In this document: piece after piece, positions 34 through 21,252 of the stretch
Numbering within the stretch: the first letter of the stretch is position 1
Layout of the letters: every line of letters starts with the position of its first letter
Assembly: GCA_027353465.1 (NCBI GenBank)
Contig: DAIEHR010000346.1
Coordinates: 1 to 37,685 of the forward strand
DNA: 37,685 nt
From: Acetobacteraceae bacterium
Lineage (GTDB): Bacteria; Pseudomonadota; Alphaproteobacteria; Acetobacterales; Acetobacteraceae
Reading direction: 5' to 3'
Notes under the pieces: model-generated
The model's database searches: none
What the model saw: the letters and a program-made list of their open reading frames with translations, nothing else
Told to the model about the DNA's origin: nothing
Program-made: the position numbers and the translations under genes

Positions 34-678
34 ATGAACGGGCGTAAAGCGCAGGACCGCTTCTACCTGGGCCTTGGGGCGTGCGGGCGGCATACGGGCG
101 AAACGGGCGACGCGTTCCGTCCCTACGGATCGTCCGACCCGCTGGATCGCAAGAATCGCTTTCTTCGGCTGCCCGCTGCCTTTGTCTCCGCCAGGGGAAA
201 AAGCAGCCATACCAATGTTTACGGCGAGGTGCTTTGGCATGGACTGTTCGATGCCAGTTACACGCGGCCCGGCGATTATCTTGTTACACCCGCCGGGACT
301 TACTTTATTGCCTCGCAGGCGTCTTTGCTTCCTGTTCTGTGTGTGCGGACCAACCGGACGATCTCGGTTACGCGGGCGAGCATACAGGTGAACCCGGCGC
401 TGAACGGATATGGCGGCTATAATCCGAATGCGCGGCTTACGTTGATGGAGCGATGGCCGGCCAGTTTACTTGGGGAAGGGCTTTCGGGCACCTCCCGGGC
501 GGGGTTGCCAACCGACCAGGCGGTTCAGGTTTGGGAGGTGCTTCTGCCTTCGGTCGCGGAGATTTTTTTAGCTCCGGGCGATATTGTCACCGACGATCTT
601 GGCCGGACCGCGGTAATCGCGGGTTCGGAGCTGACCGATTTGGGATGGCGCATCAGCGCCAAGATGGCGACCACTTAA
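34..678 (+). CDS. Putative phage neck / head-tail connector protein
   Basis: 214 aa, soluble, no signal peptide or membrane segment. I do not recognise a named family with certainty. The C-terminal stretch GDIVTDDLGRTAVIAGSELT looks like the beta-barrel portion of head-tail joining or stopper proteins that mention coordinate/relative positions on a tail interface. Position supports a neck role: it lies directly upstream of a tail-terminator-like gene, which is followed by sheath and tube. The start is the ATG at 34, because an in-frame TAG at 28-30 limits extension. Its stop TAA abuts the ATG at 679, suggesting translational coupling. It could instead be a minor structural protein of unknown role. 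Confidence 0.6.
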   Translation: MNGRKAQDRFYLGLGACGRHTGETGDAFRPYGSSDPLDRKNRFLRLPAAFVSARGKSSHTNVYGEVLWHGLFDASYTRPGDYLVTPAGTYFIASQASLLPVLCVRTNRTISVTRASIQVNPALNGYGGYNPNARLTLMERWPASLLGEGLSGTSRAGLPTDQAVQVWEVLLPSVAEIFLAPGDIVTDDLGRTAVIAGSELTDLGWRISAKMATT

Positions 679-1488
679 ATGGCAGATATTTCCGATGTCG
701 AAAATGCCCTGACCGGCGCTGTTACTTCAATTCTATATCCAAACGGTTCTGCCGAGGCCAGTTTCCCCGGGCCGTTGTGCCGCATCTACCGGGGCTGGCC
801 GGCCCCGGCGACGCTGAACGCGGACCTGACGGCTGGTGTGGCGAACATCACAGTGAACGGCGACAACGATCCCGGGCGAACCACGACGCGATATCTTCAG
901 CAATGGCAGGTCGGCACGACATCGCCTGGCACAGCGGCGGGGGTATCGGGGCAGACCATTACGATTTCCGGAACCCCCGCCGTCGGCGACGTCGTGGGAG
1001 CGATTGTTGACGGAGTGCCTTACGCATACCGAGTTGTGGCCGGGGACAGCCCGGGCCTGATCGCGGCAAATCTGGCCCAGGCAATTCAGACCACACGGAT
1101 CGCCAACTATCAGGGGTTCGCGGTCACTATCCCGGGCGCCCATGCCGTGACCGCGCAAGCCGTCTGCGACAACACCGCGCAGGTTGAAAGCCGCCGCCAG
1201 GAAAAGGACATACGGATCGCCTGCTGGTGTGCGACACCGTCTGTCCGGGATATAATTGCGGCAGCGATCGACAGCGCGTTGAGCGGCCTGGCATTTCTGC
1301 CACTAGCCGACGGGACGCAAGCGCGCCTGACCTATCGCAATACCCAAAGTTACGATCAGTCGCAGAATGCCCTGCTGTACCGCAGGGATATTGTCTATAC
1401 GGCCGAATATGCGACGATCGAAACGGATACGCTGCCGTCGATGTTGTTTGGCGTGTCGAACGTCGGTGATAATACGACATATGTTTAG
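679..1488 (+). CDS. Putative tail-terminator / tail completion protein
   Basis: 269 aa. It begins with MADISDVENALTG, a short helical start typical of tail-terminator (gpU/gp37-type) proteins that cap the tube. A middle insertion rich in beta strands (about residues 60-160) separates it from the C-terminal part, where an IACWCATPSVRD segment and a final strand region (RRDIVYTAEYATIE) resemble proteins that dimerise into a ring. The function is inferred mainly from position between the connector-like gene and the sheath. The ATG directly follows the upstream TAA with no gap. Residues 60-160 could be a decoration domain. Confidence 0.6.
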   Translation: MADISDVENALTGAVTSILYPNGSAEASFPGPLCRIYRGWPAPATLNADLTAGVANITVNGDNDPGRTTTRYLQQWQVGTTSPGTAAGVSGQTITISGTPAVGDVVGAIVDGVPYAYRVVAGDSPGLIAANLAQAIQTTRIANYQGFAVTIPGAHAVTAQAVCDNTAQVESRRQEKDIRIACWCATPSVRDIIAAAIDSALSGLAFLPLADGTQARLTYRNTQSYDQSQNALLYRRDIVYTAEYATIETDTLPSMLFGVSNVGDNTTYV

Positions 1489-1500
1489 GTATTTACAGTA

Positions 1501-1647: not shown

Positions 1648-1652
1648 ATCCG

Positions 1653-3215
1653 ATGCCAATCGCACAACAAGGCAGCGTCAACACAACGTCGCTGATCGTT
1701 CCCGATCTGTATGTCCAGATCGTCTCGCCGCAGAATTTAGTTCTGAATGGGGTTCCCACGAATATCGTTGGGATGGTGGGTACTGCCTCATGGGGGCCGG
1801 TGAACGAGCCGGGGATCGTCGGCACGATGGGGGACTACGCCCAGCAGTTCGGAGCGATCATCCCGCGGAAATACGATCTGGGCACCCAGGTGGCGACCGC
1901 GGTTCAGCAAGGCGCACAGAATTTCCGGTGCGTCCGGGTTACCGACGGCACAGACACCGCTGCTTTTGCGGTGGTACCCGGTTCCAATGCGTCATTCACG
2001 GCGCTTTATACCGGTTCGCTTGGTAACCAAATTACTTTGACGCTTGGGGCCGGGTCGCAGTTGAACTCCTGGAAGCTATCGGTACTGCTGCCAGGGTTCG
2101 AGCCAGAAGTTTATGACGGCCTGACCGGCGATGGCGCGGCCTTCTGGACCGGGCTGGCCGCCGCGGTGAATAGCGGCCAGGGGCCCCAGCGGGGACGCTC
2201 GCAGCTTGTTGTGGCCAGCGCTGGGGGGACAACGGCGTCGCCGGCGGCATTTTCGACTTCGCTGGCATCCTCTGGGGCGGGGACCGATGGGGCATCGCAA
2301 GTCGGCAGTGCCCAGTTGGTCGGCGTCGATGCGCCGGTTCGCAGCGGAATGTATGCGCTGCGGGGCCAAGGTTGCGGCCTGGGACTGCTGGCGGATTGCG
2401 ACGATCCGACCACATGGACCACGCAGGGCGGGTTTGGGCTGCAAGAGGGGATGTATATGATCCTCACCGGCCCGGCGGGCGATACGATTTCAAATGCCGT
2501 CGCAACGGTAGCCGGTGCCGGACTGAACACTTATGCCGCAAAGCTGATGTTCGGGGACTGGCTTTGGTGGTCGGACGCCGCGAACAACACCATTCGGCTG
2601 GTCTCGCCGCAGGGCTTCACCGCCGGCCGTCTGTCCAATCTGTCGCCCGAACAGTCCAGCCTGAATAAGCAGATTTACGGGGTGATCGGCAGCCAGCGGG
2701 CGGGGACGCCTGGATCTGGCCAAAGCTCGACCTATTCGTCGGCGGACCTAGGAGCGCTTTTGAGCGCCGGGATCGATGTCATCTGCAATCCGCAGCCCGG
2801 CGGGTCGTATTGGGGTGTTCGGGGCGGGATCAACACGTCTTCCAATGCGGCGACCAATGGCGACAACTATACGCGGCTGACCAACTACATCGCCGAGACG
2901 CTGGCCGCGGGCATGGGCTTGTATGTTGGTCAGGTGATCAACGCTACGCTGTTTCAGAATATCCGCTCCACGCAACTGTCTTTCCTCAACAACATGTATG
3001 GCCAGGGCCTGCTGGGTAGTTCCGACGGATCGCTTCCATTCAGCGTTATTTGCGATACGACTAACAATCCGTCGTCGCGGACTGGACTGGGTTATGTGCA
3101 GTCCGATGCGCAGGTCCAGTATCAGGCCATCAATGAGCGCTTTATCGTCAATGTGGAAGGTGGGCAGACAGTTCAGGTTTCGCGCCAGACACTTCCGAGC
3201 GGCCAAGTTAATTAG
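1653..3215 (+). CDS. Contractile tail sheath protein
   Basis: 520 aa, the usual length of Mu gpL/P2 FI-type sheaths. The N-terminus reads PDLYVQIVSPQNLVLNGVPT followed by IVGMVGTASWGPVNEP, matching the sheath start in which an N-terminal arm is followed by a GxAxWGPxN segment. The C-terminal third contains the conserved core (NYTRLTNYIAETLAAGMGLY), a stretch ending in SFLNNMYGQGLLG, and a final beta region (NERFIVNVEGGQTVQVSRQ). It polymerises around the tube and contracts to drive penetration. The tube gene follows at 11 nt spacing. This is the strongest evidence that the element makes a contractile tail. Confidence 0.95.
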   Translation: MPIAQQGSVNTTSLIVPDLYVQIVSPQNLVLNGVPTNIVGMVGTASWGPVNEPGIVGTMGDYAQQFGAIIPRKYDLGTQVATAVQQGAQNFRCVRVTDGTDTAAFAVVPGSNASFTALYTGSLGNQITLTLGAGSQLNSWKLSVLLPGFEPEVYDGLTGDGAAFWTGLAAAVNSGQGPQRGRSQLVVASAGGTTASPAAFSTSLASSGAGTDGASQVGSAQLVGVDAPVRSGMYALRGQGCGLGLLADCDDPTTWTTQGGFGLQEGMYMILTGPAGDTISNAVATVAGAGLNTYAAKLMFGDWLWWSDAANNTIRLVSPQGFTAGRLSNLSPEQSSLNKQIYGVIGSQRAGTPGSGQSSTYSSADLGALLSAGIDVICNPQPGGSYWGVRGGINTSSNAATNGDNYTRLTNYIAETLAAGMGLYVGQVINATLFQNIRSTQLSFLNNMYGQGLLGSSDGSLPFSVICDTTNNPSSRTGLGYVQSDAQVQYQAINERFIVNVEGGQTVQVSRQTLPSGQVN

Positions 3216-3226
3216 GATATGAGCCA

Positions 3227-3655
3227 GTGGCACTGACAACATTTTCAATTGGCCGCGATACCCAGCTTGTGGTCATGGGACCGACGGGCCGGGTCGATCT
3301 GAGTCATGTAACGGGGTTTGAAAGCCGGCAGCTCACCAGCGCGGTTCGGGTGAGCCGGATCGACGGAACACAGCTTGCGGCGGAGTTGCCGAAGGGGTGG
3401 GAAGGAAGTTTCGAGGTGGAGCGCGGCACCTCGGCATTGGACGACCTGATCTCTACCATCGAGCAGAACTTCTACAACGGTGGGGTCGTTGCACCCGGAA
3501 CGATGTATCAGTATATCACCGAGGCCGACGGATCAGTTTCCACTTACCAGTTCGATGGCGTTGTCTTCAAGCTGGCGACCGCCGGTGTTTGGAAGGGCGA
3601 TTCCAGTGTCAAACAGAAGCTGGAATTCTACGCCACGCGGAAGCGGCGCATCTGA
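3227..3655 (+). CDS. Tail tube protein
   Basis: 142 aa, single-domain tail tube of the Mu gpM/P2 FII class, forming hexameric rings inside the sheath. It starts at GTG 3227 with AGGA at 3214-3217, nine nt upstream; an ATG at 3219 gives only a five-residue peptide and is rejected. The sequence shows the expected pattern: an early loop (DLSHVTGFES), then DGTQLAAELPKGWEGSFEVE, and a final strand (SVKQKLEFYATRKRRI) with a basic end. The stop overlaps the next start (TGATG), so chaperone synthesis is probably coupled to tube synthesis. Confidence 0.9.
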   Translation: MALTTFSIGRDTQLVVMGPTGRVDLSHVTGFESRQLTSAVRVSRIDGTQLAAELPKGWEGSFEVERGTSALDDLISTIEQNFYNGGVVAPGTMYQYITEADGSVSTYQFDGVVFKLATAGVWKGDSSVKQKLEFYATRKRRI

Positions 3656-4014
3656 TGACGCCGTCGCAGACGATTATCCGTGAGGCCACACGGACGTTCA
3701 CAGTAACCGATATCAATGGGCGGCATTTGCTGATCCGTGGCCTGACCGCGCTGGATACGTTGCGGCTGTTCAAGGCGGCCGGGCCGGAACTGGCGCAGAA
3801 CGAGGCTTGGCTGGCGATGGCTGGACTGGCGTTCTCGGTAGTCGATATCGCGGGTGTTCCGGTCCCTGCCCCAGCCAGCGAATCCCAGATCGAGGGGATC
3901 ATCGATCGGTTGGGCGACGAGGGTCTGGCAGCTATCGCAACCGCGTTGCGAGCCAACGAACCGGCCGCCCCATCGGAAACCGACGTGGGAAACTCGCTCG
4001 GCACCCCGTTCTGA
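3655..4014 (+). CDS. Tail assembly chaperone, zero-frame product (gpG-like)
   Basis: 119 aa, starting at ATG 3655 that shares an A with the tube-protein stop. The sequence has a beta-rich start (RTFTVTDINGRHLLIRGL) and then helical stretches (LDTLRLFKAAGPEL, IEGIIDRLGDEGLAAIATAL), as in phage tail assembly chaperones that hold the tape measure during tube polymerisation. It lies between tube and tape-measure slot, the invariant position of this gene. Near its 3' end is a G GGA AAC heptamer in the correct phase, which leads to a longer fusion product. The family assignment is inferred from position, size and the frameshift design. Confidence 0.82.
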   Translation: MTPSQTIIREATRTFTVTDINGRHLLIRGLTALDTLRLFKAAGPELAQNEAWLAMAGLAFSVVDIAGVPVPAPASESQIEGIIDRLGDEGLAAIATALRANEPAAPSETDVGNSLGTPF

Positions 4015-4178
4015 TCGATTGCCTTTATTTGGTTCGGCATGGGGTGCCGTTCGATGTTGCCTTTTCCCTGTCCGCGTCACAGCGGTCGGCATTTGTTATC
4101 GCGCTTGGGACTCTGGATGGGCACCAATTCGATTGGGCCAGCTTTGCTTGGTCGGACCCTGGATTGTCCTTCCGGTAA
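3655..4178 (+). CDS. Tail assembly chaperone, -1 frameshift fusion (gpGT-like)
   Basis: Predicted product of about 174 aa: the first 113 codons of the zero frame (to 3993), then the -1 frame from CTC at 3993 to the TAA at 4176-4178. The added tail (LIDCLYLVRHGVPFDVAFSL, ending in LDGHQFDWASFAW) has no start codon of its own near the junction and contains the 'fDVAfsLs...alGtLdGhqFDW' pattern seen in small proteins encoded at this location in many contractile phages. Such G/GT pairs are made in a fixed ratio and are both needed for tail assembly in lambda. Production of the fusion here is a prediction from the cassette described separately. Confidence 0.8.
3987..4049 (+). promoter_or_regulatory. 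Programmed -1 ribosomal frameshift cassette (slippery site plus stem-loop)
   Basis: GGGAAAC occupies 3987-3993 and is phased G GGA AAC relative to the 3655 frame, fitting X XXY YYZ. After a 5-nt spacer (3994-3998), CGGCACCCC (3999-4007) pairs perfectly with GGGGTGCCG (4041-4049), extendable by a G-U and U-A pair, around a loop of about 29-33 nt. The lambda G/GT site is the close relative GGGAAAG. Slippage moves ribosomes into an open -1 frame ending at 4178. Confidence 0.88.
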
Positions 4179-4208
4179 TCCAGGATCCGGCCGGAGGGGT
4201 AAGTAGTT

Positions 4209-5060
4209 TTGCCGTTGAAAAAGCGCGTTGCCTGGTTCCGGCAACTGAAATCGATATTTCCGGCCCCGCGACGTTTCCTCGCTCCGACCCGCAACCGGTA
4301 CCGGCGGCCACGACCGGAGACGGACGATGGCGCCGGCGTCGGTGTCGGCGGAGAGAGGCCTGGCCTGAGCGGGATCGCGCGGTACTCAGTGGCGGTTCGT
4401 TCGGCGAAAACCGCTGGGTCTGAGCTGGCCCGTGCGCGAGGCGCCTACCAAGCGCAATCGTCTCCATTGAGGGTGGGGCTTGCTGATCCCGGTCAAGTCC
4501 CGGCACCGAGCGGCAGGACCGTTTCGGTCCCACGGTATTTGCGGCCGCTTACCCGGCAAATCCTGATGGCGGTTTCGGAAGCACGCGGCACATCGGTCAT
4601 TACGGACGTTCTGCCGAACCAGGTGGGCTCAGAGCCGGCGCAGGGGTTCCATGCCGGCCCGGCCGGCTCCGTCAAGCAGCCGTCTGGTTACCGGGCGGTT
4701 GCCAAGGCAGCCGGCCTGCCGCTTTCGCGGCGAGCCGATTATTCGTCGAAGGCTCTCGGGCATGGTGTTGCGCCCTCGGGCACGTCGATGGCGCCGCCAG
4801 CGGTGTCGGCGAACAGCGATAATGCCGCCTCCGCCACGGACCTGGTGGCGCCTGGCGAACGCGGATTTCGGGCCGCCGAACCGCCAGGGCAGGAGACCGG
4901 ACACAAGCCGCCATCCCGCGCCACCCTGCATATCGACGGCCACGCGCTCGGACGATGGACGGTCCAGCATTTGGAAAAGGTCCTCGGGCGGCCATCGGCC
5001 GGCATGACGGGTGTCGATCCGCGGGCCATCACGCCACGTACTCGAATTTCGCCGTTCTAA
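4209..5060 (+). CDS. Short protein in the tape-measure position (283 aa, atypical)
   Basis: It starts at TTG 4209, supported by a strong GGAGGGG at 4193-4199 nine nt upstream; an in-frame TAA at 4200 blocks extension. The protein is rich in Arg, Pro, Gly and Ala, has a basic N-terminus (KKRVAWFRQLKSIFPAPRR) and a low-complexity middle, and shows none of the long helical or transmembrane stretches expected of a tape measure. The end, ATLHIDGHALGRWTVQHLEK followed by RPSAGMTGVDPR, looks like a conserved C-terminal motif, and I believe similar endings occur on tape-measure proteins of related elements. A reduced tape measure, or a separate assembly protein, are both possible. No other gene in the cluster could be the tape measure. 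Confidence 0.6.
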   Translation: MPLKKRVAWFRQLKSIFPAPRRFLAPTRNRYRRPRPETDDGAGVGVGGERPGLSGIARYSVAVRSAKTAGSELARARGAYQAQSSPLRVGLADPGQVPAPSGRTVSVPRYLRPLTRQILMAVSEARGTSVITDVLPNQVGSEPAQGFHAGPAGSVKQPSGYRAVAKAAGLPLSRRADYSSKALGHGVAPSGTSMAPPAVSANSDNAASATDLVAPGERGFRAAEPPGQETGHKPPSRATLHIDGHALGRWTVQHLEKVLGRPSAGMTGVDPRAITPRTRISPF

Positions 5061-5113
5061 GCTGTCTCGCGCTGCTGGCTACACTTTCTTCTTATAACAG
5101 CCGGAGGTCCGCT

Positions 5114-5839: not shown

Positions 5840-6035
5840 TGCATCTCCCACGGGCTCGATTACAGCGATTGGCGGCAATTTGTTTCAGATCGCCGCCGCA
5901 CAACTAGGGAGCGCGATGCAGTGGGTAAATATCGCCCAAGCCAATGGGCTTCGGGACCCCGATCTGTCAGGCCCGACCGTTCTTATCATACCTGCCCTAT
6001 CCGCCGCTTTCGCCGACGGCATCAGTCCACAGTAA
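5832..6035 (+). CDS. Tail protein X, LysM-like
   Basis: 67 aa. ATG 5832 overlaps the end of the upstream gene by 8 nt. The sequence ITAIGGNLFQIAAAQLGSAM followed by WVNIAQANGLRDPDLSGPTV and a final LIIP strand is the compact LysM pattern (G-x-x-L-x-x-I-A, then W-x-x-I-A-x-A-N-x-L-x-D-P) of P2 gpX-type proteins, which sit at the baseplate and may bind peptidoglycan or stabilise the hub. Stop and next ATG are directly adjacent (TAAATG), implying coupling to the hub gene. Confidence 0.8.
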   Translation: MANASPTGSITAIGGNLFQIAAAQLGSAMQWVNIAQANGLRDPDLSGPTVLIIPALSAAFADGISPQ

Positions 6036-7049
6036 ATGCCCGCGTTTCAAGCACCAGTGATTCAAGTCACCATCGATGGTACGCCGATATACGGACTGCT
6101 TCGGGCGTCTATCGTCGCCACGAATTCCTTTTGCGCGGACACCTATGTCCTAACCTTCGCCATCGGGGCGCAACCGCAAAACGATATCGGCTTCTGGGCA
6201 AGTGTGACATCTGGAATCGTTACGGTCAGCGCGGGGCAGACTTCACCCTATGGGCCAATATACAACCCGCTGATCACGGGCATCATCGACGCGATAGGGG
6301 TCGATCCGGTCCATGGCGTGGCGACGGTCGAGGGGCGCGATCTTTCGGGACGGCTGGTCGATTGCTACAGGCAGCAGGACTTTGTGAACCAAACAGCGTC
6401 GGAAATCGTCGCTACAATTGCGCAGTATCATGGCCTGCCACCTCAGGTCGCGGCGACCGAAGGCAATGTCGGCCGCTATTATGCGGACGGCTATACTAAA
6501 CTGTCGCTGGGTCAATATTCCCGATTACAATCGGATTGGGATTTAATCGTCGAACTTGCCCGCGAAGCTGCCTTCGACGTCTATGTTCAAGGTACGTCGT
6601 TGTATTTTCAGCCACAAACGGTCCCCATGGGTGTCCCGATCGGGTTGTCGTTACACCAAGTACAGGGCCTGTTCATCGAGCGCAACGTCAATGTTTCGCT
6701 GAATGCCACGGCCCAGGTACAGTCGTGGAACTCCCGCGACATGGCGTCTTATTCCAGCCTTCCGAACCAACAGACGGGACCCGCTTCGCTGCCATTCCTG
6801 TTTTCGGGTTCGAATTATACATCCCAGCAGGTCACTAACTCAATGAGTCAGTATGGCGCCGAATTGGCGCGACTTGCGACCACTTTGCGAATCGAAATGC
6901 CTTGGAACCCGGCGTTGACGCCGCGCACGATCATCGTCCTTAGCGGAACCAATTCGGTACTCGATCGGGCTTATCGCATCGATTCCGTGGAAAGCCGGTT
7001 CTCCGGGGCGTCCGGCTCAGAACAGACCATTTTCGCCTGTCAAATTTGA
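6036..7049 (+). CDS. Baseplate hub protein, gpD-like
   Basis: 337 aa, the usual length of P2 gpD/late control D-type hubs, which form the trimeric hub at the distal end of the tube and are structurally akin to the VgrG N-terminus. Visible features are an N-terminal strand (PVIQVTIDGTPIYGLLRASI), the central EGRDLSGRLVDCYRQQDFVN segment, a QSDWDLIVELAREAAFDVYV stretch typical of hub proteins (long-helix 'W-D-x-x-x-x-L-A-x-x-x-G/A-F'), and a final strand region (LDRAYRIDSVESRFS). The start ATG follows the upstream stop immediately. The gene lies between gpX-like and gpV-like genes, as expected. Confidence 0.85.
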   Translation: MPAFQAPVIQVTIDGTPIYGLLRASIVATNSFCADTYVLTFAIGAQPQNDIGFWASVTSGIVTVSAGQTSPYGPIYNPLITGIIDAIGVDPVHGVATVEGRDLSGRLVDCYRQQDFVNQTASEIVATIAQYHGLPPQVAATEGNVGRYYADGYTKLSLGQYSRLQSDWDLIVELAREAAFDVYVQGTSLYFQPQTVPMGVPIGLSLHQVQGLFIERNVNVSLNATAQVQSWNSRDMASYSSLPNQQTGPASLPFLFSGSNYTSQQVTNSMSQYGAELARLATTLRIEMPWNPALTPRTIIVLSGTNSVLDRAYRIDSVESRFSGASGSEQTIFACQI

Positions 7050-7072
7050 TTACTGGATCGAGTCAGGACTTA

Positions 7073-7591
7073 ATGACCAACGCGCTATCGAATATCCTAA
7101 AATCGCATGCGTCCACACTCGACAGAACCATAGGGCAGGTCAAGTTCGGAACCGTTGCGTCGGTTAATCCCAATGATGCGACGGTACGGGTCATTGTCCA
7201 GCCGGAGGGCGTGCTTTCCGGGTGGCTGCCTGTTTTATCCCAATGGGTTGGGAGCGGCTGGGGTATGGTCAGTCCGCCCACGCCGGGCGATCAGGTCGCC
7301 CTGATTCCGCAGGAGGGGGACATCGAACAGGGTATTGTTGTCGGCTCCCTGTTTTCCAGCAAGCAAATGCCTCCACCGGCCCCTAGCGGCGAGTTGTGGC
7401 TCGTGCATGCGGGCGGAACGTCTTTGAAGATTTGTAATGATGGGACTATCCGCATCAATGGCAGTCTGTACGTCTCGGGCGATATTTTCGACCAACATGG
7501 GGCCATGTCCGCACTGCGCGGACATTATAACGCCCATACACACACGGACCCGAATAATCTGACGACAAGCCCCCCCACTCCGCAGGATTAG
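7073..7591 (+). CDS. Baseplate spike protein, gpV-like
   Basis: 172 aa from ATG 7073, which has AGGA at 7065-7068; an in-frame TTG at 7046 overlaps the hub stop but lacks a ribosome-binding site. An OB-fold portion (GTVASVNPNDATVRVIVQPE, then WVGSGWGMVSPPTPGDQV) is followed by a short beta-helix-like region (LKICNDGTIRINGSLYVSGD). The end, HYNAHTHTDPNN, holds an H-x-H motif like that coordinating a metal ion at the membrane-piercing tip of gpV/Mu gp45 spikes. The protein sits at the tip of the tube and is the first to contact the target envelope. Confidence 0.9.
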   Translation: MTNALSNILKSHASTLDRTIGQVKFGTVASVNPNDATVRVIVQPEGVLSGWLPVLSQWVGSGWGMVSPPTPGDQVALIPQEGDIEQGIVVGSLFSSKQMPPPAPSGELWLVHAGGTSLKICNDGTIRINGSLYVSGDIFDQHGAMSALRGHYNAHTHTDPNNLTTSPPTPQD

Positions 7592-7596
7592 CCGCG

Positions 7597-7968
7597 ATGC
7601 TCGATATTTTCCATCATTGGGGCGACGATCTGGCGGTCGGCAACAGCGGCGATCTGGCGCTTTCATCGGGTTCGGACACGACGAACCAGCGGATTCTACG
7701 CAGGCTGTTGACGAACCCGGGCGATTATATTTGGAACCTGGACTACGGAGGCGGCCTGGGGAACTTCGTTGGTAAGCCGGTCAGTCCGAAAGCAATCGAG
7801 GGTGTCATCCGCACTCAGCTTCTTGAAGAGGCCGCCATCCCCGTATCGCCCGCCCCCGGGATTGTGACAACAATCACCGACGCTGCCCAGGGAACCGTGG
7901 CGGTTTCCATCACATATTCCGCCGCGGATTCGCCTGGTGCAGTTACCCTCAACTTCAATGCGGGGTGA
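7597..7968 (+). CDS. Baseplate wedge protein, gpW/gp25-like
   Basis: 123 aa, the size of P2 gpW/Mu gp46/T4 gp25 wedge proteins, which initiate sheath polymerisation. The diagnostic segment is TTNQRILRRLLTNPGDYIWN followed by DYGGGLGNFVG, corresponding to the 'QRI.RRL.T.pG.y...p.YG..L' signature. An N-terminal strand (DLAVGNSGDLALSSG) precedes it. The start ATG at 7597 is 5 nt after the spike gene, and the end overlaps the gpJ start region by 4 nt. Confidence 0.92.
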   Translation: MLDIFHHWGDDLAVGNSGDLALSSGSDTTNQRILRRLLTNPGDYIWNLDYGGGLGNFVGKPVSPKAIEGVIRTQLLEEAAIPVSPAPGIVTTITDAAQGTVAVSITYSAADSPGAVTLNFNAG

Positions 7969-9110
7969 TCATATTGATCCTAAATTTGAAAGGCTTCAGC
8001 CAACTTATTGAGGATATGGCCGCGGCACTGCAGAGTTCGGCCACTGCGCTGATCGACGTGTCGGTCGGTTCGGTCATTCGAGCGATATTCGAAGCCAATG
8101 CGTCGTTGGCATTGTGGATGCAATGGCTTATTCTTCAGGTATTACAGACAACGCGGGCATCAACCTCCTCCGGATCCGATCTTGACTCATGGATGCTGGA
8201 TTTTGGGCTTACCCGCCTGCCCGCGGTACCGGCGTCGGGCATTGCGACGTTTTCCCGATTCACACCCAGCCTGCCGGCCACCATCCCGGTCGGTAGTGTC
8301 GTGAAGACCGGTGACGGCACACTGAGTTTCTCCGTGGCACAAGATTCCACACTATCAATCTGGAATGCCGCGGCATCTGGCTATGTTTTACCGAGCGGGA
8401 TCACCTCTGCCGACTTGCCTGTGGTTTGCGTCACCCCCGGTTCGATCGGGAACGTATTGGCTGGTACCATTACGGTCATTGCCGCATCGCTGCCCGGGAT
8501 CGATCAGGTCGTCAATGGCAACGCGTTGGCGAATGGTATCGATGCGGAGTCCGACATGGCGTTTCGGACGCGGTTTCAGGGCTACCTGACGAGCCGGTCT
8601 CAGGCTACCTTGGGTGCGATCAATAATGCGATCGTGAGTGTGCGCCAGGGTCTCCGGGCGGTCATTGCACCGAACACGGGGGCCAACGGACTGCCACTGG
8701 TTGGCGCGTTCCTGGTCGTGGTCGATGATGGCAGCGGCTATCCGTCCACCCAACTGCTTTCCAGCATCGCGACCGCGGTCGATGCGGTACGACCGGTCGC
8801 GACCACTTTTTCCGTTGTCCCGCCGCAGGTGCTGGCAGTCAACGTGGCGCTAACCGCGGCATTCGGCGGGAGCGTTCCGGCGTCTTCCGATATCGCGGCG
8901 ATCCAGCAGTCGATTGCCGTCTATTTGAACGGCCTTGGGATCGGCGATACGGCTTCGGTTACGCGGGTTGCGCAACAGGCCTATCAAGCGACCCCGATCC
9001 TGGCGAATGTTTCGAATGTACTGCTGAATGGCACGGCCGTGGATATTGCCCCCCCCTCCTACACGGTCATCAAAGCAGGGCAGGTCCAGGTATCGACCAA
9101 TGGTGGGTGA
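7965..9110 (+). CDS. Baseplate protein J-like
   Basis: 381 aa, the typical length of gpJ/Mu gp47 wedge proteins (baseplate_J family). Recognisable features are the N-terminal helix (LIEDMAAALQSS), the SSGSDLDSWMLDFGLTRLPA segment ('G..Ld.wa...G..R..a'), the ATFSRFTPSLPATIPVGSVV strand region, the ITVIAASLPGIDQVVNGNAL region, and GIDAESDMAFRTRFQGYL ('G.d.Esd...R.R'). GTG 7965 overlaps the upstream TGA; TTG 7974 is an alternative start, with GGGG at 7962-7965 eight nt before it. It forms the baseplate wedge with gpW- and gpI-like neighbours. Confidence 0.93.
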   Translation: MIILILNLKGFSQLIEDMAAALQSSATALIDVSVGSVIRAIFEANASLALWMQWLILQVLQTTRASTSSGSDLDSWMLDFGLTRLPAVPASGIATFSRFTPSLPATIPVGSVVKTGDGTLSFSVAQDSTLSIWNAAASGYVLPSGITSADLPVVCVTPGSIGNVLAGTITVIAASLPGIDQVVNGNALANGIDAESDMAFRTRFQGYLTSRSQATLGAINNAIVSVRQGLRAVIAPNTGANGLPLVGAFLVVVDDGSGYPSTQLLSSIATAVDAVRPVATTFSVVPPQVLAVNVALTAAFGGSVPASSDIAAIQQSIAVYLNGLGIGDTASVTRVAQQAYQATPILANVSNVLLNGTAVDIAPPSYTVIKAGQVQVSTNGG

Positions 9111-9762
9111 TATCGCCGATATCGTCGGGCGCCTTGTTGCCGCCCTGCCCGGCCGATGGTTCGGGAGTTCCAGTCCCAACCTGATGGGACTGCTGAGCAG
9201 TATCGGGACATCGTGGGTCTGGCTCTATGACCGTATTACGTATGTCATTCAGCAGACACGGCTGTTGACCGCGACGGAGGAATGGCTCGACCTGATCTCC
9301 AACGATTACTTTGGAGCGGCGATGACGAGGAAGTCGGGCGAGCCTGACAGTTCCTTTCGGACCCGCATCCAGACCGCGCTGCTGGCCGAAGCCGCGACCC
9401 GCGATGCAGTATCCGCCGGGTTACAATCGCTGACCGGCACGATGCCGACGATCTTCGAGCCCGCGAAATGCAGCGACACAGGGGGCTATGGCCTAATCGG
9501 GGGCGGCATGGCATATGGCTCCGCGGGGGGGTGGGAAAGCCTGAGCCTGCCCTTGCAGTGTTTCATCACGGTAACGCGGCCACCTACGCTGGGCGCGAAC
9601 GGGATTGCTGGATATGGCACCCCAGCGGGCGGCTTTGGCGAAGGTTCTATCAGTTATGTGGATCTGGGACTGCTGCCTGGCGAGGTGACGGATCAGGACA
9701 TCCAGGACGCCATTTCCCGCCTAATGCCCATCAACGCCGTCGCGTGGCTTCGCATTATTTGA
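9100..9762 (+). CDS. Tail/baseplate protein I-like
   Basis: 220 aa. ATG 9100 overlaps the gpJ end by 11 nt; an upstream in-frame candidate at 9028 lies entirely inside gpJ and is rejected. N-terminal helices (DIADIVGRLVAALPGRWF, LMGLLSSIGTSWVWLYDRIT) and the WLDLISNDYFGAAMTRKSGE segment, followed by SSFRTRIQTALLAEAATRDA, resemble Mu gp48/P2 gpI-type wedge proteins, and gene order supports this. The C-terminal half is glycine-rich (GGYGLIGGGMAYGSAGGWES), ending with DQDIQDAISRLMPINAVAWL, probably the fibre-attachment side. Confidence 0.8.
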   Translation: MVGDIADIVGRLVAALPGRWFGSSSPNLMGLLSSIGTSWVWLYDRITYVIQQTRLLTATEEWLDLISNDYFGAAMTRKSGEPDSSFRTRIQTALLAEAATRDAVSAGLQSLTGTMPTIFEPAKCSDTGGYGLIGGGMAYGSAGGWESLSLPLQCFITVTRPPTLGANGIAGYGTPAGGFGEGSISYVDLGLLPGEVTDQDIQDAISRLMPINAVAWLRII

Positions 9763-9790
9763 TTCATATTTCAGATCGGTCAAAATAATC

Positions 9791-11044
9791 ATGGATCGGA
9801 CCATTGTTTACCCGGGTAGCATCCCGCTGGACACAGATATCTTAACAATCAATCTCAACACAATGGTTGCGCTCGGCGCGCTCTTGCAGGCGACGCTTGG
9901 CAGCAACAGCGTGGTCGATGGCCTTGGTTGCCAGCCCACCAGTCCGCCATCGATGGGCGTTGTTGTTGGACCCGGCAGTATTACCCAGATCAACGTGGTG
10001 GACACGCTCGCCTATGGGTCGATCGGGGCCAATTCTTCTGCCCAAACGGTCAAAATGGGAATAAATATCGGCCCTACGTCGTTTACCATTGCCGCACCCA
10101 CCAGCGCGGGGCAGTCAGTCAGCTATATTATCGAGGCTGCTTTTCAGGAGTCCGACGGAAACCCGGTACTTCTTCCCTATTACAACGCGAGCAATCCGGC
10201 GCAGTCGTTTTCGGGCCCCGCCAATTCGGGGGCGGCCCAGAATACCTCTCGTATCCAAAGGGTTCAGTTGCAACTGAAGGCAGGGCAGCCAGCGAACACC
10301 GGGACGCAGGTAATGCCCGCGGCCGATAGCGGCTGGATCGGTTTGTATGAAATATCGGCGGCCTATGGGCAAACTCAGATTACCGCCGCGAATATTCAGG
10401 TTATTCCGACGGCCCCGTTTCTGAATTGGAAACTGCCCGCACTTGGGCCCGGCGTGTCGACAGGCGTTCAGAGCTTTGCATCGACTGGCGTGTTTAACGT
10501 TCCCGCCGGGGTCGCTCAGGCCGAGGTCGAGGTTTGGGGCGGAGGGGCCGGGAGTTTCGCGTCGGTGCCGGGCCTGTCCAGCGGCGGCGGATCGGCTGGC
10601 GGATATGCCAAGAAGCTTGTAACCGGACTTGTACCAGGCCAAGCGATAACCGTTACGATTGGGGCCGGCGGCGTTGGCGGTACGACCGCTGGTGGTGCGG
10701 CGGGCCCCGGGGGAACGTCCAGCTTTGGACAAATCGTCAGCGCGACGGGTGGCAGCCTGAATTACCTGTCAACGACGCTTGCACCGGAAAACGGAGCTAC
10801 TCCGCCCGGAATTGGCATAGGGGGCGACTTAAACTTCATGGGATCGGCTGGTGCTGCCGGCATCCTGAACCAGGGCGGACTGGGCGGCGGCGCGCCAATT
10901 GGCGGAGCACAAAATAGCGGCACGAACGGAAATGTTGGGATTTTTCCCGGCGGCGGGGCGGCTGGGGCCGGAACTGGTTCTGGCGGCAACACTGCATTCA
11001 ACGGCGCCGCCGGCGCGGGCGGGTTGGTGGTTGTACGGTGGTAG
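9791..11044 (+). CDS. Glycine-rich tail fibre protein
   Basis: 417 aa. The N-terminal half (to about residue 215) is a beta-rich phage-type domain beginning DRTIVYPGSIPLDTDILTIN, the part likely to anchor to the baseplate. After a linker, residues about 226-417 form a glycine-rich region starting QSFASTGVFNVPAGVAQAEV and passing through GGGAGSFASVPGLSSGGGSA; it ends GAAGAGGLVVVRW, a characteristic end of phage/bacterial glycine-rich domains thought to form polyglycine-II-like packing. The gene starts 28 nt after gpI-like and precedes four further fibre genes, so it is probably one of several receptor-binding parts. Confidence 0.75.
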   Translation: MDRTIVYPGSIPLDTDILTINLNTMVALGALLQATLGSNSVVDGLGCQPTSPPSMGVVVGPGSITQINVVDTLAYGSIGANSSAQTVKMGINIGPTSFTIAAPTSAGQSVSYIIEAAFQESDGNPVLLPYYNASNPAQSFSGPANSGAAQNTSRIQRVQLQLKAGQPANTGTQVMPAADSGWIGLYEISAAYGQTQITAANIQVIPTAPFLNWKLPALGPGVSTGVQSFASTGVFNVPAGVAQAEVEVWGGGAGSFASVPGLSSGGGSAGGYAKKLVTGLVPGQAITVTIGAGGVGGTTAGGAAGPGGTSSFGQIVSATGGSLNYLSTTLAPENGATPPGIGIGGDLNFMGSAGAAGILNQGGLGGGAPIGGAQNSGTNGNVGIFPGGGAAGAGTGSGGNTAFNGAAGAGGLVVVRW

Positions 11045-11135: not shown

Positions 11136-11621
11136 ATGTCCACGACTTTAAGTCATGTCTGGAAACCAAGCATCGCCCGCTTGGTGACCATCGATTCCTT
11201 TATACCGGTGCCCAGGGGCTCGCTGGCTTCAGCCCCGGCGCCGCTAAACTGGCCGGCGAAGGACCCCGCCGATACACTGGACTACATCCTGGATATTGGC
11301 CCTGCCGTCGTCGGGAATGACGGAGACGCGATCGCGACCGCCAACGTCAGCGTTGCGCCGAATAATCCCGGCGACCTGGTTTTACAGAGTACTACAGCCG
11401 ACGGTTGCAGAGTCGTTATCTGGTTATCGGGTGGACAGGTGGGGACTGTTTATACAGTCACATTTTCCCTCGGCACCGTGAATGGCCGATCTATTCAAAG
11501 AACGGTTCTGCTTCCTGTGCTGTCACTCTCCATGCTGACTGCTCCCGCTACGGCCATCATCACGACCTCTGGGAGCGTTATTACCGACCAGAACGGCAAT
11601 CCGATGTTGTCGTCCGTTTGA
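11136..11621 (+). CDS. Small fibre-associated phage protein
   Basis: 161 aa, no membrane segment. I recognise no named family. It is beta-rich: TLDYILDIGPAVVGNDGDAI, then SVAPNNPGDLVLQST, VVIWLSGGQVGTVYTVTFSL and IQRTVLLPVLSLSML, compatible with an immunoglobulin-like fold whose strands are arranged around a WLSGGQxGTxYTV motif. Proteins of this size commonly sit among tail-fibre genes and form fibre accessory or collar parts; that role is inferred from position. The ATG at 11136 follows an AAGG (11126-11129) at suitable spacing. Confidence 0.6.
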   Translation: MSTTLSHVWKPSIARLVTIDSFIPVPRGSLASAPAPLNWPAKDPADTLDYILDIGPAVVGNDGDAIATANVSVAPNNPGDLVLQSTTADGCRVVIWLSGGQVGTVYTVTFSLGTVNGRSIQRTVLLPVLSLSMLTAPATAIITTSGSVITDQNGNPMLSSV

Positions 11622-11685
11622 TATTTGAGTTTTGCGATTTCCAAGGGCACACCTACTGCTCAGGGCGCCGAAAGGACTTAGTTTC

Positions 11686-14600
11686 ATGCCCACAATTGAC
11701 GAGCTTGCACCAGCTTCTTCCGCCTCCGACTCAGATGAATTTGTCGTCAGCCAAGGGGGTATCGCCAGGAAGATTACTCGCGCTCAGGTCCTTGCGGGCG
11801 TTCAGCCCCAAATCTCGGTAGCTCCGGTATCCCTGCTGGGTAATTTCGGCACTGCCAGCGGTTCACCCGAAGTAATATCCATTGGACAGAATCTGATCTT
11901 ATCCGGTTCCACTCTATCGGCGACGGCAGCACCGTTTGTGATCGGCGACCTGCCGGATGGAACGGTGCCTTCCTCGGGCGATCTGATTTCACTCTCCCAG
12001 GCGGGATCGACAGTTGCTGTTACTTACGGCCAGTTTCTGAATGGTATCGCGGGTGTCGCGAATGTCAATATTTCCGGCGCGCTGGTTACATCGGCCGGCA
12101 GCAATAGCGGCGGCCAGCCATTAAGCACACTGATCGGAACGCTTTTGCCAATTTCCGGCGGGACATTGACTGGTGCTTTGACACTTAGCGGCATTCCCAC
12201 ATTACCATCGCAAGCGGCGAACAAGTCCTATGTGGACCAACAATTCGCGACAGCACTACCGCTGGCCGGGGGATCGCTGACGGGTTCTCTGTCGCTGGCC
12301 GGCCAACCGCAACGGCCGCTCGATGCCGCAAGCAAGAGTTATACGGATGCCCTTGGCGCCGCGATGGTACCGTTGACAGGAGCATCTCTTACGGGCGCTT
12401 TGATATTAAGCGGCGATCCTGCCGTGCCACTTGCTTCCTCCACTAAGCGATATACGGATCTCAAGGTAAGCCGCACTGGCGATACGTTGACTGGCTCGCT
12501 GATGCTGGCCAGTGACCCTGTCTTGGGGGCGCAGGCGGCCACCAAAAACTATGTCGATGTTCAGGTCGCCACCGCCCTGCCACAGGCCGGTGGGACAATG
12601 AGCGGGACACTTATGCTAGCCACCGACCCGACAAGCAGCGCCCAGGCGGCCACCAAGCAGTATGTCGATCAGCGTGTGCTCAGAAACGGGGATAGCCTGA
12701 CTGGGCCGTTGATCTTAGCGGCCGATCCCACGCAGGGGGCGCAGGCGGCCACCAAATCCTATGTGGATTTGCAGGTTTCCAGCTCGATATCGAAGGCTGG
12801 CGGGTCGATGAGCGGCGGCCTGCTTCTCGCGGGCGACCCGTCCGCCGCACTTCAGGCGAGCACGAAACAATACGTCGATTTGCGCGTCACCCGAACGGGG
12901 GACAGCCTAACCGGAGCGCTATATCTGGCCGGCAATCCGACAGCCCCGATGCAGGCGGCGACGAAGCAATATGCGGATGGTCAATTCGCCAATGCGGTTT
13001 CGATTTCCGGGGCCACGCTGACTGGACCGTTGGTTTTATCCGGCGACCCGACATTGAACGAGCAAGCGGCAACCAAACAATATGTGGATACCAAGATATC
13101 CAGGACCGGCGATACGCTAACCGGGATACTGACGCTGGCATCCGACCCTACGTCCGCGGCCCAGGCAGCGACGAAGCGATATGTCGATACCCAGGTGCTG
13201 AGCTCCCTGGGGCTTTCCGGGGGCACACTTACGGGGGCGCTGACGCTCGTTGCCGATCCGGTGACAAGCGGCCAGGCGGCGACGAAACATTATGTCGATA
13301 CCGGGGTCGGGACGGCACTGCCATTATCCGGTGGGTCTCTTGTGGGGGCCTTGTCGCTCTCCGGCCCGCCGCTAGCCGCAGCCAATGCTGCGAACAAACA
13401 ATATGTTGACGGCCAGATCGCGGGCGCGTTGCCGATCGCTGGCGGCACTTTGACCGGTCCGCTGCTGCTGTCATCCGCCCCCTCGGCCCCGCTTCAGGCA
13501 GCGACGAAGTCTTATGTGGATGCCAATCCGAATTCCCAGGGTGTCCTTAACGTCGCGCTGCCGCCGTTTGGAGCCAAACTGGATGGCACGACCGATGACA
13601 CGGCTGCGTTTGCCGCCGCCTATTTGGCAGCTGCGACCGGTGCGACCATCTACGTTCCCAGCGGCACGACAGTTCTCAGGCAACCGGGAACATGGGGTAT
13701 TGCGCTGACCAAGCGCGTTCGCTGGGTCGTTGCCGGTACGATATTGAACGACGGAACGCCGCTAGCCGCGGCGGTTCCAACCGGCGGAGGACCCGCGGCA
13801 TTCGTGCTACCGGGCTTCATTACCGGTAACACGCAGACTGGAAACACGACCTCGCAGGGCGCTTCGCAATCGAGTGATTTTGCTGTCACGCAGTCTTCCT
13901 ATATAGTAAATCATAGTGGAGGACCGAGCAATGTGATCACGAATGTTCGGTCTGATACGATTATCTATAATAGTCCAGGCAACTATGTGTGGAATGGCCT
14001 GGACCGGCTTATTTGGGCGGGGACGCAGACCCCATCCGCTACGGCAGCGGCGCAACACGTGGGACGCTATATCCAAACGCTTCGGCAAGCTGCCTGGACA
14101 GACGCCAACGGATCCTTTTTGCCTCAACCGCAGATGTGGGGTGCCTGTATCGAGTATCGGGATACGACCGGCTATGCATCGAGCGCCACGAATGCGGCGC
14201 TGACGGTTGAGATGGACTGGTTCGGCAACGGCGCGGACGACGCGAACACCCGGACGATCCAAAGCCTGGTGATTGGGCAGCATAATCTGTCGGGGACGCC
14301 GGTCGAACTAGCCAATATCATCGGCGTCTATCTGGCTGGCGGGTCCTCGGGCAGCGCAAAAACTGTATTTGCGATTGGCGTTCCATTTTCGACTGCCGTA
14401 CTCGATACGACGTATGCACAATCGATCAACAACGCGCCTGCGATCAAAATGGCGGCGGGCCAGGCTATCGCGTTTGAGGGAACGAACAGCAATCGGCTCG
14501 CTTACGACGCCACAACCAATACCCTGAGATGGAATCAGGGGACGCTTTCCTATGTGGTTGGAAAGGGCATATCTGTAGGCTGGGTCGATGTTTATGCGGC

Positions 14601-15069
14601 GTCGGCTGTACTGCCGAATAATATTTCTGGCAATCTGATCGTTCTTAACGGATCTGGATCATACTCTATCGCACTTCACGCGGCCAATACGGTTGCAGCA
14701 GGGACAGGGTTTACGTTCTCTGTGACTGGAACAGGCCAGATCAGCATCCAGCCTAACGGCGCCGATAGTATCGACTCCGGCCCCATCGTGCTGAAACCGA
14801 ATGACCGTTATCATATCGTGTCGGATGGGTCTGGCTCGTGGAAAGAAATTTTCTGGACGAACGCTGTCTCCCCCCACTTTCTGGGCCCAATGGTATTAGC
14901 TAACTACACTGTTGCCGGCTTGCCAGGTGGTGTGAGCGCAGGAGCCAAGGCATTTGCGTCGAATGGACGCAAACCGAGTGAAGCAGTCGGGGCCGGGACA
15001 GGTGTTGAAGTGTTTTTCGATGGTCAGCACTGGATTTCATCCTGCAGCGGCTCTGTTGTTTCTGCGTAA
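11686..15069 (+). CDS. Large repetitive tail fibre with beta-helix-like C-terminus
   Basis: 1127 aa from ATG 11686 (AAAGGA at 11671-11676, nine nt upstream); the open frame extends to 11632 but without a site. Residues 1-150 form an N-terminal module (MPTIDELAPASS; DEFVVSQGGIARKITRAQVL) shared with the next gene. Residues about 154-612 hold 13 tandem units of the form G-G-x-L-x-G-x-L-x-L-x-x-D-P-x-x-x-x-Q-A-A-T-K-x-Y-V-D, the classic long-tail-fibre shaft repeat. About residue 626 onward, PPFGAKLDGTTDDTAAFAAA and then TIYVPSGTTVLR match the opening of pectate-lyase-like beta-helix tailspikes, but the remainder is divergent and no catalytic residues could be assigned. The end (VEVFFDGQHWISSCSG) is a common fibre-tip ending. 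Confidence 0.85.
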   Translation: MPTIDELAPASSASDSDEFVVSQGGIARKITRAQVLAGVQPQISVAPVSLLGNFGTASGSPEVISIGQNLILSGSTLSATAAPFVIGDLPDGTVPSSGDLISLSQAGSTVAVTYGQFLNGIAGVANVNISGALVTSAGSNSGGQPLSTLIGTLLPISGGTLTGALTLSGIPTLPSQAANKSYVDQQFATALPLAGGSLTGSLSLAGQPQRPLDAASKSYTDALGAAMVPLTGASLTGALILSGDPAVPLASSTKRYTDLKVSRTGDTLTGSLMLASDPVLGAQAATKNYVDVQVATALPQAGGTMSGTLMLATDPTSSAQAATKQYVDQRVLRNGDSLTGPLILAADPTQGAQAATKSYVDLQVSSSISKAGGSMSGGLLLAGDPSAALQASTKQYVDLRVTRTGDSLTGALYLAGNPTAPMQAATKQYADGQFANAVSISGATLTGPLVLSGDPTLNEQAATKQYVDTKISRTGDTLTGILTLASDPTSAAQAATKRYVDTQVLSSLGLSGGTLTGALTLVADPVTSGQAATKHYVDTGVGTALPLSGGSLVGALSLSGPPLAAANAANKQYVDGQIAGALPIAGGTLTGPLLLSSAPSAPLQAATKSYVDANPNSQGVLNVALPPFGAKLDGTTDDTAAFAAAYLAAATGATIYVPSGTTVLRQPGTWGIALTKRVRWVVAGTILNDGTPLAAAVPTGGGPAAFVLPGFITGNTQTGNTTSQGASQSSDFAVTQSSYIVNHSGGPSNVITNVRSDTIIYNSPGNYVWNGLDRLIWAGTQTPSATAAAQHVGRYIQTLRQAAWTDANGSFLPQPQMWGACIEYRDTTGYASSATNAALTVEMDWFGNGADDANTRTIQSLVIGQHNLSGTPVELANIIGVYLAGGSSGSAKTVFAIGVPFSTAVLDTTYAQSINNAPAIKMAAGQAIAFEGTNSNRLAYDATTNTLRWNQGTLSYVVGKGISVGWVDVYAASAVLPNNISGNLIVLNGSGSYSIALHAANTVAAGTGFTFSVTGTGQISIQPNGADSIDSGPIVLKPNDRYHIVSDGSGSWKEIFWTNAVSPHFLGPMVLANYTVAGLPGGVSAGAKAFASNGRKPSEAVGAGTGVEVFFDGQHWISSCSGSVVSA
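12145..13521 (+). repeat. 13-unit fibre shaft repeat (33- and 37-residue units)
   Basis: Coding repeats within the fibre gene. Thirteen G-x-L-x-G-x-L-x-L strands are each followed by a K-x-Y-[VTA]-D turn. Two unit types are seen: a 37-residue form with LPxxGG and a 33-residue form with R-[TN]-G-D. In the middle (12457 to about 13200) they alternate strictly, giving a 70-residue superrepeat. The DNA copies are diverged, so repeat-driven slippage is not recent. Confidence 0.85.
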
Positions 15070-15107
15070 TATTATTAGACCGTAAGATTTGAGAGTTTAG
15101 AACACAG

Positions 15108-16967: not shown

Positions 16968-16969
16968 AT

Positions 16970-20793: not shown

Positions 20794-21252
20794 CTAGCGG
20801 CGGTATGGAAGCGGCAGCAGCGTCCTGATTGGCAGTTTGATCAGGACGCCGGAGTCCTTGACGATGATCGTCGCATCGGGAGCGTGATCGATAATCATCT
20901 CCCTACAGGCTCCGCATGGCGGCACCACGGCCAGTTCCCGATCGGTTTCCTCGGGCTTGGGATGTCGCACGGCGACTGCTGTCAGGATGGTTCCGTCGCC
21001 GTCTAACACCGCACGACCGAAAGCCACTGCCTCGGCGCATACTGACAGCCGCCCCACGGTAGTTCCAATATGCAGTCCGGTCCAAACGCGACCATCCCGG
21101 GAGCGGATCGCGGCCGCAACCATGTGCCAGAATGGCTGATAATGCTTTGCCAGAACGGCGTTGGCAGCAGCAATCAGTTCATGATCGCCTTCTGTCAGTG
21201 CGATGTCTGGCGCGATAGCGTCATTCAGCGGCTTCGGCTTCCTCGGTATCAT
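20794..21252 (-). CDS. Cytidine deaminase-like zinc hydrolase
   Basis: 152 aa. The zinc-site motifs are in the right order: C-A-E in [14 protein letters not shown] (Cys ligand plus catalytic Glu) and PCGAC-R-E near residue 112 (two Cys ligands). The C-x-E rather than H-x-E form and length fit tetrameric cytidine deaminase/blasticidin-S deaminase-like proteins. The start at 21252 overlaps the recA 3' end by 32 nt, in another frame; the next in-frame ATG falls within the domain, so this start is retained. Co-directional with recA and probably co-transcribed. It converges on the TPP enzyme with 15 nt between stops. Substrate uncertain (cytidine or a nucleoside analogue). Confidence 0.85.

What the first reader, a model, noticed from the sequence alone, without database searches (positions are those of the whole stretch)
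3987..4178. Complete -1 frameshift cassette making a G/GT-type tail chaperone
The heptamer GGGAAAC is correctly phased (G GGA AAC), is followed by a 5-nt spacer and a perfect 9-bp GC-rich stem (3999-4007 with 4041-4049), and the -1 frame stays open to 4178 with a conserved-looking extension (LIDCLYLVRHGVPFDVAFSL ... FDW). All three signals coincide where lambda-type tail chaperones use a GGGAAAG site. Standard gene callers would miss the extension.
Basis: seen in the sequence. Interest (0 to 1): 0.85.

Follow-up and report, generated by a model that had tools for sequence, protein, structure and literature searches.

The report
Conserved frameshift in tail-chaperone gene
A phage-type tail gene in a relative of the purple bacterium Rhodopila carries a well-preserved signal that should make some ribosomes slip back one base and add about 60 residues to the protein, a known trick of tailed phages seen here in a family that databases have not named.

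Summary
It is the only heptamer with such a stem in the window. Of 37 places found with the upstream protein alone (the window among them), 36 have an in-phase GGGAAAC or AAAAAAC. All 157 loci gathered through the extension have the heptamer. In 140 non-redundant loci codon choice is strongly constrained at heptamer and stem and weakly elsewhere. The extension is under purifying selection and is predicted to fold. The upstream protein lies beside sheath and baseplate genes; its best PDB match is the HK97 tail assembly chaperone (weak, E 0.044). So this is very probably a -1 frameshift G/GT-type tail chaperone: a new member of a known kind. More novel is the setting: in one group of relatives the terL-to-fibre cluster sits between tgt and recA, with no integrase seen, which suggests a domesticated, contractile, gene-transfer-agent-like element. 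No frameshift product has been shown.

The parts
3655..4014 (+). G-type tail assembly chaperone ORF (0 frame), 119 aa, phrog_20383 (unknown function)
3987..3993 (+). slippery heptamer G GGA AAC
   Evidence: read directly; in phase in 36 of 37 places and 157 of 157 extension loci
3994..3998 (+). 5-nt spacer (6 nt to the conserved stem core)
3999..4009 (+). 5' arm of the hairpin; conserved core 4000-4008
   Evidence: codon constraint
4039..4049 (+). 3' arm of the hairpin; conserved core 4040-4048
   Evidence: codon constraint
4012..4014 (+). 0-frame TGA stop, 18 nt after the heptamer
   Evidence: spacing classes in relatives
3987..4178 (+). -1 frame T-type extension (63 residues counted from the heptamer, stop TAA)
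   Evidence: predicted fold; dN/dS 0.084 for the part after the 0-frame stop, one pair
1653..3215 (+). tail sheath (phrog_23)
   Evidence: E 1.3e-46
3227..3655 (+). probable tail tube (phrog_12993, unknown function; assigned by position, homologue of phiKX1 gene 570)
   Evidence: tube function inferred
4209..5060 (+). candidate, very short tape measure protein, 283 aa
   Evidence: assigned by position only; no credible family match, no match to the phiKX1 candidate
34..1488 (+). two genes matching phiKX1 genes 520 and 530 (phrog_14605, phrog_13532), which lie between coat and sheath in phiKX1
6036..11044 (+). tail hub-like, baseplate and fibre-assembly genes
11136..19036 (+). fibre-adaptor, tail fibre and two large genes that end the cluster
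   Evidence: order kept in relatives
21221..22261 (-). host recA, the downstream flank in one group of relatives

Best explanation
[quoted passage not shown] Most ribosomes read ORF 3655-4014 and make the G-type chaperone. A minority slip from GGA-AAC to GGG-AAA, helped by the 9-bp hairpin, and continue in the -1 frame to 4178, making a GT-type fusion with a folded C-terminal domain of about 60 residues. By analogy with lambda, G binds the tape measure, the T part recruits tail tube subunits, and the slip rate fixes the ratio of G to GT. Shown here: the sequence elements, their conservation, constraint on codon choice, purifying selection in one pair. Inferred: that slippage happens, its rate, and the chaperone role.
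For: Elements read directly and stable hairpin. 36 of 37 places with a G homologue, in 33 of 98 genomes searched, keep an in-phase heptamer. 157 of 157 extension loci (76 GTDB, 80 IMG/VR, the window): 134 GGGAAAC, 22 AAAAAAC, 1 GGGAAAT. In 140 non-redundant loci synonymous constraint falls at the heptamer (GGG in 118 of 118 loci with Gly there, background 0.19; AAA in 140 of 140, background 0.35) and the stem arms (Arg NGG 127 of 127 loci with Arg; His CAC 135 of 140; Gly GGG 137 of 140; Val GTG 140 of 140, background 0.37), and is 0.26 bits or less in the nine codons looked at after the 3' arm. dN/dS of the extension 0.084 against the nearest relative; AF2 mean pLDDT 86.6. G model: best PDB match HK97 tail assembly chaperone 2ob9, E 0.044, probability 0.93; phrog_508 tail assembly chaperone in 23 of 55 members, best E 0.0017. 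Same cassette in Komagataeibacter phage phiKX1, A AAA AAC TGA.
Against: No product has been detected. The stem lies inside a conserved peptide motif (RHP...GVP) and in its arms each third codon base faces a first codon base, so compensatory change is hardly possible: covariation neither supports nor refutes the stem; codon choice alone carries that argument. One G homologue (L029) has no heptamer and carries the T-like domain in the +1 frame with an ATG of its own, so the domain can be made otherwise. The chaperone assignment rests on position, weak profile hits and a weak fold match; the G homologues have no credible Pfam match, the extension has no credible PDB match and only a weak match to an unnamed PHROG (phrog_21699, 17 of 55 members, best E 0.0024). 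Tube and tape measure are assigned by position.
Confidence: 0.95

Rival explanations
1. The T-like domain is made from a start codon of its own and no frameshift occurs; heptamer and stem are by-products of a conserved peptide.
For: L029 has the T-like domain in another frame with an ATG of its own and no heptamer. In phiKX1 the region is annotated as a separate ORF. The window's -1 frame is open upstream to a TTG at 3807, so a non-ATG start is not formally excluded.
Against: Codon choice at heptamer and stem is far from background while that of neighbouring codons is not. Conservation of the extension begins at the heptamer. The window's -1 frame from 3804 to 4178 holds no ATG.
Confidence: 0.03
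2. The fusion is made by RNA polymerase slippage at the A or G run rather than by the ribosome.
For: 22 of 157 loci use AAAAAAC, a run of six A, on which polymerase could slip.
Against: 134 of 157 use GGGAAAC, which has no run longer than three; the hairpin at constant close spacing and the strict XXXYYYZ phase are what tandem tRNA slippage needs (mechanism recalled).
Confidence: 0.02
3. Chance coincidence of a heptamer and a stem near an ORF end.
For: 44 heptamers of the XXXAAAN/XXXTTTN class lie on the + strand of the window.
Against: Only one has a 9-bp stem at such spacing, against about 0.1 expected in both strands, and the arrangement is conserved in relatives.
Confidence: 0.001

Closest known systems
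Phage lambda gpG/gpGT and the conserved tail-gene frameshift of dsDNA phages (Xu, Hendrix and Duda 2004; not read, known here through passages of PMC2628397, PMC10885494 and PMC5009743)
   Same: -1 slip near the end of a small gene after the major tail gene and before the tape measure; small C-terminal extension; tandem slippery heptamer
   Different: No sequence relation shown; contractile-tail cluster; [quoted passage not shown] in 80 of 157 loci the 0-frame stop follows the heptamer directly
Komagataeibacter phage phiKX1 genes 580/590 (LC644975)
   Same: Homologous G (31% identity over 66% of the query), heptamer A AAA AAC, like hairpin arms, homologous -1 extension
   Different: Lies in a 53-kb temperate phage sequenced in PMC8566455 (passages seen: integrase named for these phages, phiKX1 predicted incomplete by PHAST); larger gene in tape-measure position (742 aa); stop directly after the heptamer; annotated as two hypothetical proteins; its terminase finds no match in the relatives' regions
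HK97 tail assembly chaperone (PDB 2ob9)
   Same: Best PDB fold match of the G model
   Different: Weak: E 0.044, TM 0.46/0.51, 17% identity; a siphovirus protein
Gene transfer agents of Alphaproteobacteria (RcGTA type, BaGTA)
   Same: Head-to-tail cluster at a fixed chromosomal site in one group of hosts, no integrase seen, short tape measure candidate
   Different: Contractile tail genes; neither particles nor DNA transfer shown; no sequence comparison with RcGTA or BaGTA was made here

Membership tests
[quoted passage not shown]
   36 of 37 places with a homologue
G/GT-type tail assembly chaperone with programmed -1 frameshift | -1 frame extension conserved and under purifying selection | tested here: met
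   dN/dS 0.084 in one pair
G/GT-type tail assembly chaperone with programmed -1 frameshift | Lies between major tail protein and tape measure gene | tested here: inconclusive
   sheath upstream is clear; tube and tape measure are assigned by position, without a named family match
G/GT-type tail assembly chaperone with programmed -1 frameshift | Fold or family of known tail assembly chaperones | tested here: inconclusive
   best PDB match HK97 chaperone, E 0.044; phrog_508 in 23 of 55, best E 0.0017; no credible Pfam match
G/GT-type tail assembly chaperone with programmed -1 frameshift | Both G and GT proteins are made, at a fixed ratio | not testable with these tools
   needs a reporter or mass spectrometry
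Gene transfer agent (viriform) | Structural cluster kept at one chromosomal site in related hosts | tested here: met
   between tgt and recA in 8 of the 10 genomes that hold all three on one contig; the 2 others (G054, G057) are of other genera with weak hits. G001, G003 and G016 share another site
Gene transfer agent (viriform) | Divergence follows that of the host | tested here: inconclusive
   tube-RecA r 0.76 in 27 genomes, sheath-RecA r 0.58 in 25, 0 of 2000 permutations each; within the tgt-recA group r 0.73 and only 0.38
Gene transfer agent (viriform) | No integrase or replication genes in the cluster | tested here: inconclusive
   none among the cluster ORFs given to Pfam or PHROGs; small ORFs and several head-region ORFs were not scanned; terL starts about 270 nt from tgt in L034
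Gene transfer agent (viriform) | Particles package and transfer host DNA | not testable with these tools
   needs particles and sequencing of the packaged DNA

The most novel reading that the evidence does not exclude
The frameshift cassette belongs to a domesticated contractile-tail element, a gene-transfer-agent-like particle of Rhodopila and related Acetobacteraceae: a terL-to-fibre cluster without integrase, fixed between tgt and recA in one group, with synonymous divergence close to that of recA for sheath, tube and G, a very short tape measure, and an intact frameshift still under selection.
Probability: 0.45. Interest if true: 0.75.

Novelty: new member of a known kind. Interest (0 to 1): 0.45.

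Why it matters
It adds a clear, widely conserved frameshift family in contractile-tail elements that the family libraries searched do not name (PHROG of unknown function, no credible Pfam match), with a simple rule for annotation: heptamer, about 6 nt, GGCACCC hairpin arm. If the cluster is a contractile gene transfer agent, the intact frameshift would be evidence that hosts still select for working tails. In the two passages of the classification paper PMC9662315 where the word occurs, tails are called non-contractile.

Tried and rejected
Chance: rejected and by conservation. Pseudoknot with sequence 3' of the hairpin: not supported, since synonymous constraint is 0.26 bits or less in the nine codons after the 3' arm. 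Covariation as proof of the stem: no use, because the paired positions hardly vary; the outermost pair (16 of 2000 shuffles as high) and one inner pair (48 of 2000) exceed chance pairing, but the outermost is paired in only 67 of 140 loci. An inner helix in the loop appears in many loci in alternative registers; Arg16 next to it also shows 1.3 bits of constraint; not explained further. Rfam: no match in the window. An ordinary prophage at a hot spot is not excluded: no integrase seen and distances follow RecA, but sheath follows less well (r 0.58; 0.38 within the tgt-recA group), 12 of 32 same-genus relatives had no G homologue (some are incomplete), and synonymous divergence of the extension (1.19) and baseplate J (1.42) exceeds that of recA (0.86) (near saturation, one pair). 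A recA in two pieces in one relative looked like an intron and was searched in Rfam without result; the gap proved to be unread bases, so it was dropped. Literature: (tail assembly chaperone + Acetobacter) found 0 papers. Searches showed no contractile gene transfer agent in the titles and abstract starts listed (20 of 51 and 12 of 486 papers listed); the library is open-access only.

My slips: the script did not turn minus-strand loci round; one search did, except L010, set right. In one search the sheath comparison failed because of short hits; one search repeated it without 2 of 27 genomes. Dropped rows: of 157 loci, 1 lacked 120 nt upstream and 16 of the remaining 156 were over 95% identical to another, leaving 140. 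IMG/VR gave 466 relatives, of which the tool kept 80. Alignments A2 and A3 hold 55 of the 80 diverse loci. The extension loci were chosen by two peptide patterns, one covering residues of the heptamer, so 157 of 157 leans towards the peptide, not towards its codons; the set of 37 is free of that.

Full report
The observation. ORF 3655-4014 (119 aa) contains GGGAAAC at 3987-3993, phased G GGA AAC, then 5 nt, then nine Watson-Crick pairs 3999-4007/4041-4049; the -1 frame is open to TAA 4176-4178. The stretch 3980-4060 folds at -35.2 kcal/mol, z -3.42. A scan of both strands for such a heptamer with a 9-bp stem finds only this site; 40 simulated windows average 0.1.

The neighbourhood. Upstream is a tail sheath (phrog_23, E 1.3e-46) and a 142-aa probable tube gene; downstream are a 283-aa gene in the tape-measure position, then hub-like, baseplate injector, wedge and fibre genes. 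The ORF itself belongs to phrog_20383, of unknown function. The window's extension matched no Pfam or PHROG family (at E 0.1; at E 1). Ten of the window's genes match phiKX1 genes in the same order; the phiKX1 tape-measure candidate does not match. phiKX1 is one of six temperate phages sequenced in PMC8566455, of which I saw the start of the abstract and passages: mitomycin C-inducible, contractile tails of 156 nm, phiKX1 predicted incomplete by PHAST.

The host. So the window very probably comes from a Rhodopila relative.

Conservation, unselected. A search with the upstream protein in 98 genomes found 37 places in 33 genomes, the window among them. Of these 37, 36 have an in-phase GGGAAAC or AAAAAAC leading into a -1 extension. 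The exception, L029, has the T-like domain in the +1 frame with an ATG of its own and GGAG a few bases before it. phiKX1 has A AAA AAC TGA and like hairpin arms.

Conservation, wide. An alignment of 15 extensions found 76 loci in GTDB contigs, whose titles name Rhodopila, Acetobacteraceae, Rhodospirillales, Acidisphaera, Acidisoma, Komagataeibacter and others or only Proteobacteria, and in one case Solirubrobacterales; and 80 kept of 466 in IMG/VR. With the window that is 157 loci: 134 GGGAAAC, 22 AAAAAAC, 1 GGGAAAT, all in phase. The 0-frame stop follows after exactly 18 nt in 77 loci and directly in 80.

Codon-level test. In 140 non-redundant loci the first 30 codons from the heptamer were compared with codon usage in long ORFs of the same loci. 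Constraint is strong at Gly and Lys of the heptamer (2.4 and 1.5 bits) and in the stem arms: Arg 1.7, His 0.65, Pro 1.1, Gly 2.2, Val 1.4 bits. Arg16, just before the 3' arm, shows 1.3 bits; the others 0.43 or less. So bases, not only residues, are kept. The stem core 4000-4008/4040-4048 pairs in 127 to 140 of 140 loci at each position, the outer pair 3999-4049 in only 67. Covariation could not be tested, since the paired positions hardly vary.

The proteins. Between the window and its nearest relative (G005), dN/dS is 0.143 for G, 0.084 for the part of the extension after the 0-frame stop, 0.035 for sheath, 0.045 for the tube gene. AF2 gives the extension three helices and short strands, mean pLDDT 86.6, and G 82.7. 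The best PDB match of G is the HK97 tail assembly chaperone 2ob9 (E 0.044, probability 0.93). phrog_508, tail assembly chaperone, matches 23 of 55 homologues (best E 0.0017). The extension has no credible PDB match (best E 2.4); its best match among viral models is an uncharacterised phage protein, E 0.23, probability 0.99.

Mechanism. The simplest reading is the lambda scheme: mostly G, some GT by -1 slippage, with a hairpin as stimulator. The passages of PMC5009743 that I saw describe gpG and gpGT as binding the tape measure and the T part as binding the major tail protein. Slippage, ratio and binding are inferred here.

A surprising setting. Ten of the 33 genomes hold a G homologue, tgt and recA on one contig. 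In eight (G005, G006, G008, G010, G012, G013, G024, G029) the cluster lies between tgt and recA; in two of other genera with weak hits (G054, G057) the three are far apart. The window and G015 each show one flank. G001, G003 and G016 share a different site with each other. In the rest tgt and recA, where found, are on other contigs or over 60 kb away; for G002 the contig is too short to tell. Portal and coat lie upstream in 14 of 14 upstream regions fetched; a terminase was identified by Pfam in G005, and the corresponding G052 protein matches 12 of 13 other regions. No integrase was seen among the ORFs scanned. Tube distances follow RecA distances (r 0.76, 27 genomes), sheath less so (r 0.58, 25 genomes), each with 0 of 2000 permutations as high; within the tgt-recA group r is 0.73 and 0.38. 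Between the window and G005 synonymous divergence of sheath, tube and G (0.87-0.98) is like that of the first 204 codons of recA (0.86), while the extension (1.19) and baseplate J (1.42) are higher. This looks like vertical inheritance of a phage-derived particle. Against it: 12 of 32 same-genus relatives had no hit, more than one site is used, and a distant relative sits in an inducible phage. Whether it is a gene transfer agent is open.

Verdict. The frameshift cassette passes the computational tests run here and is a new member of a well-known kind. The setting is the more novel part and deserves a study of its own.

Noticed in passing
window 34-19036 and 21221-22261; L032-L047: Head-to-tail cluster, no integrase seen, between tgt and recA in 8 of the 10 genomes that hold all three on one contig; gene-transfer-agent-like, with contractile tail genes.
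   Followed up: partly
window 4209-5060: Gene in tape-measure position is only 283 aa, against 742 aa for the candidate in phiKX1; short open frames at the same place in many relatives carry a like C-terminal motif (LHIDG..LGRW).
   Followed up: partly
L029 1501-2160: One homologue lacks the heptamer; the T-like domain is in the +1 frame with an ATG of its own after GGAG, perhaps a change from frameshift to separate gene.
   Followed up: partly
loci: Two discrete positions of the 0-frame stop, 0 nt or 18 nt after the heptamer, in about equal numbers (80 and 77 of 157).
   Followed up: no
L031 20342-20521 (phiKX1 gene 590): The public phage record annotates the -1 extension as an independent hypothetical protein.
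   Followed up: yes
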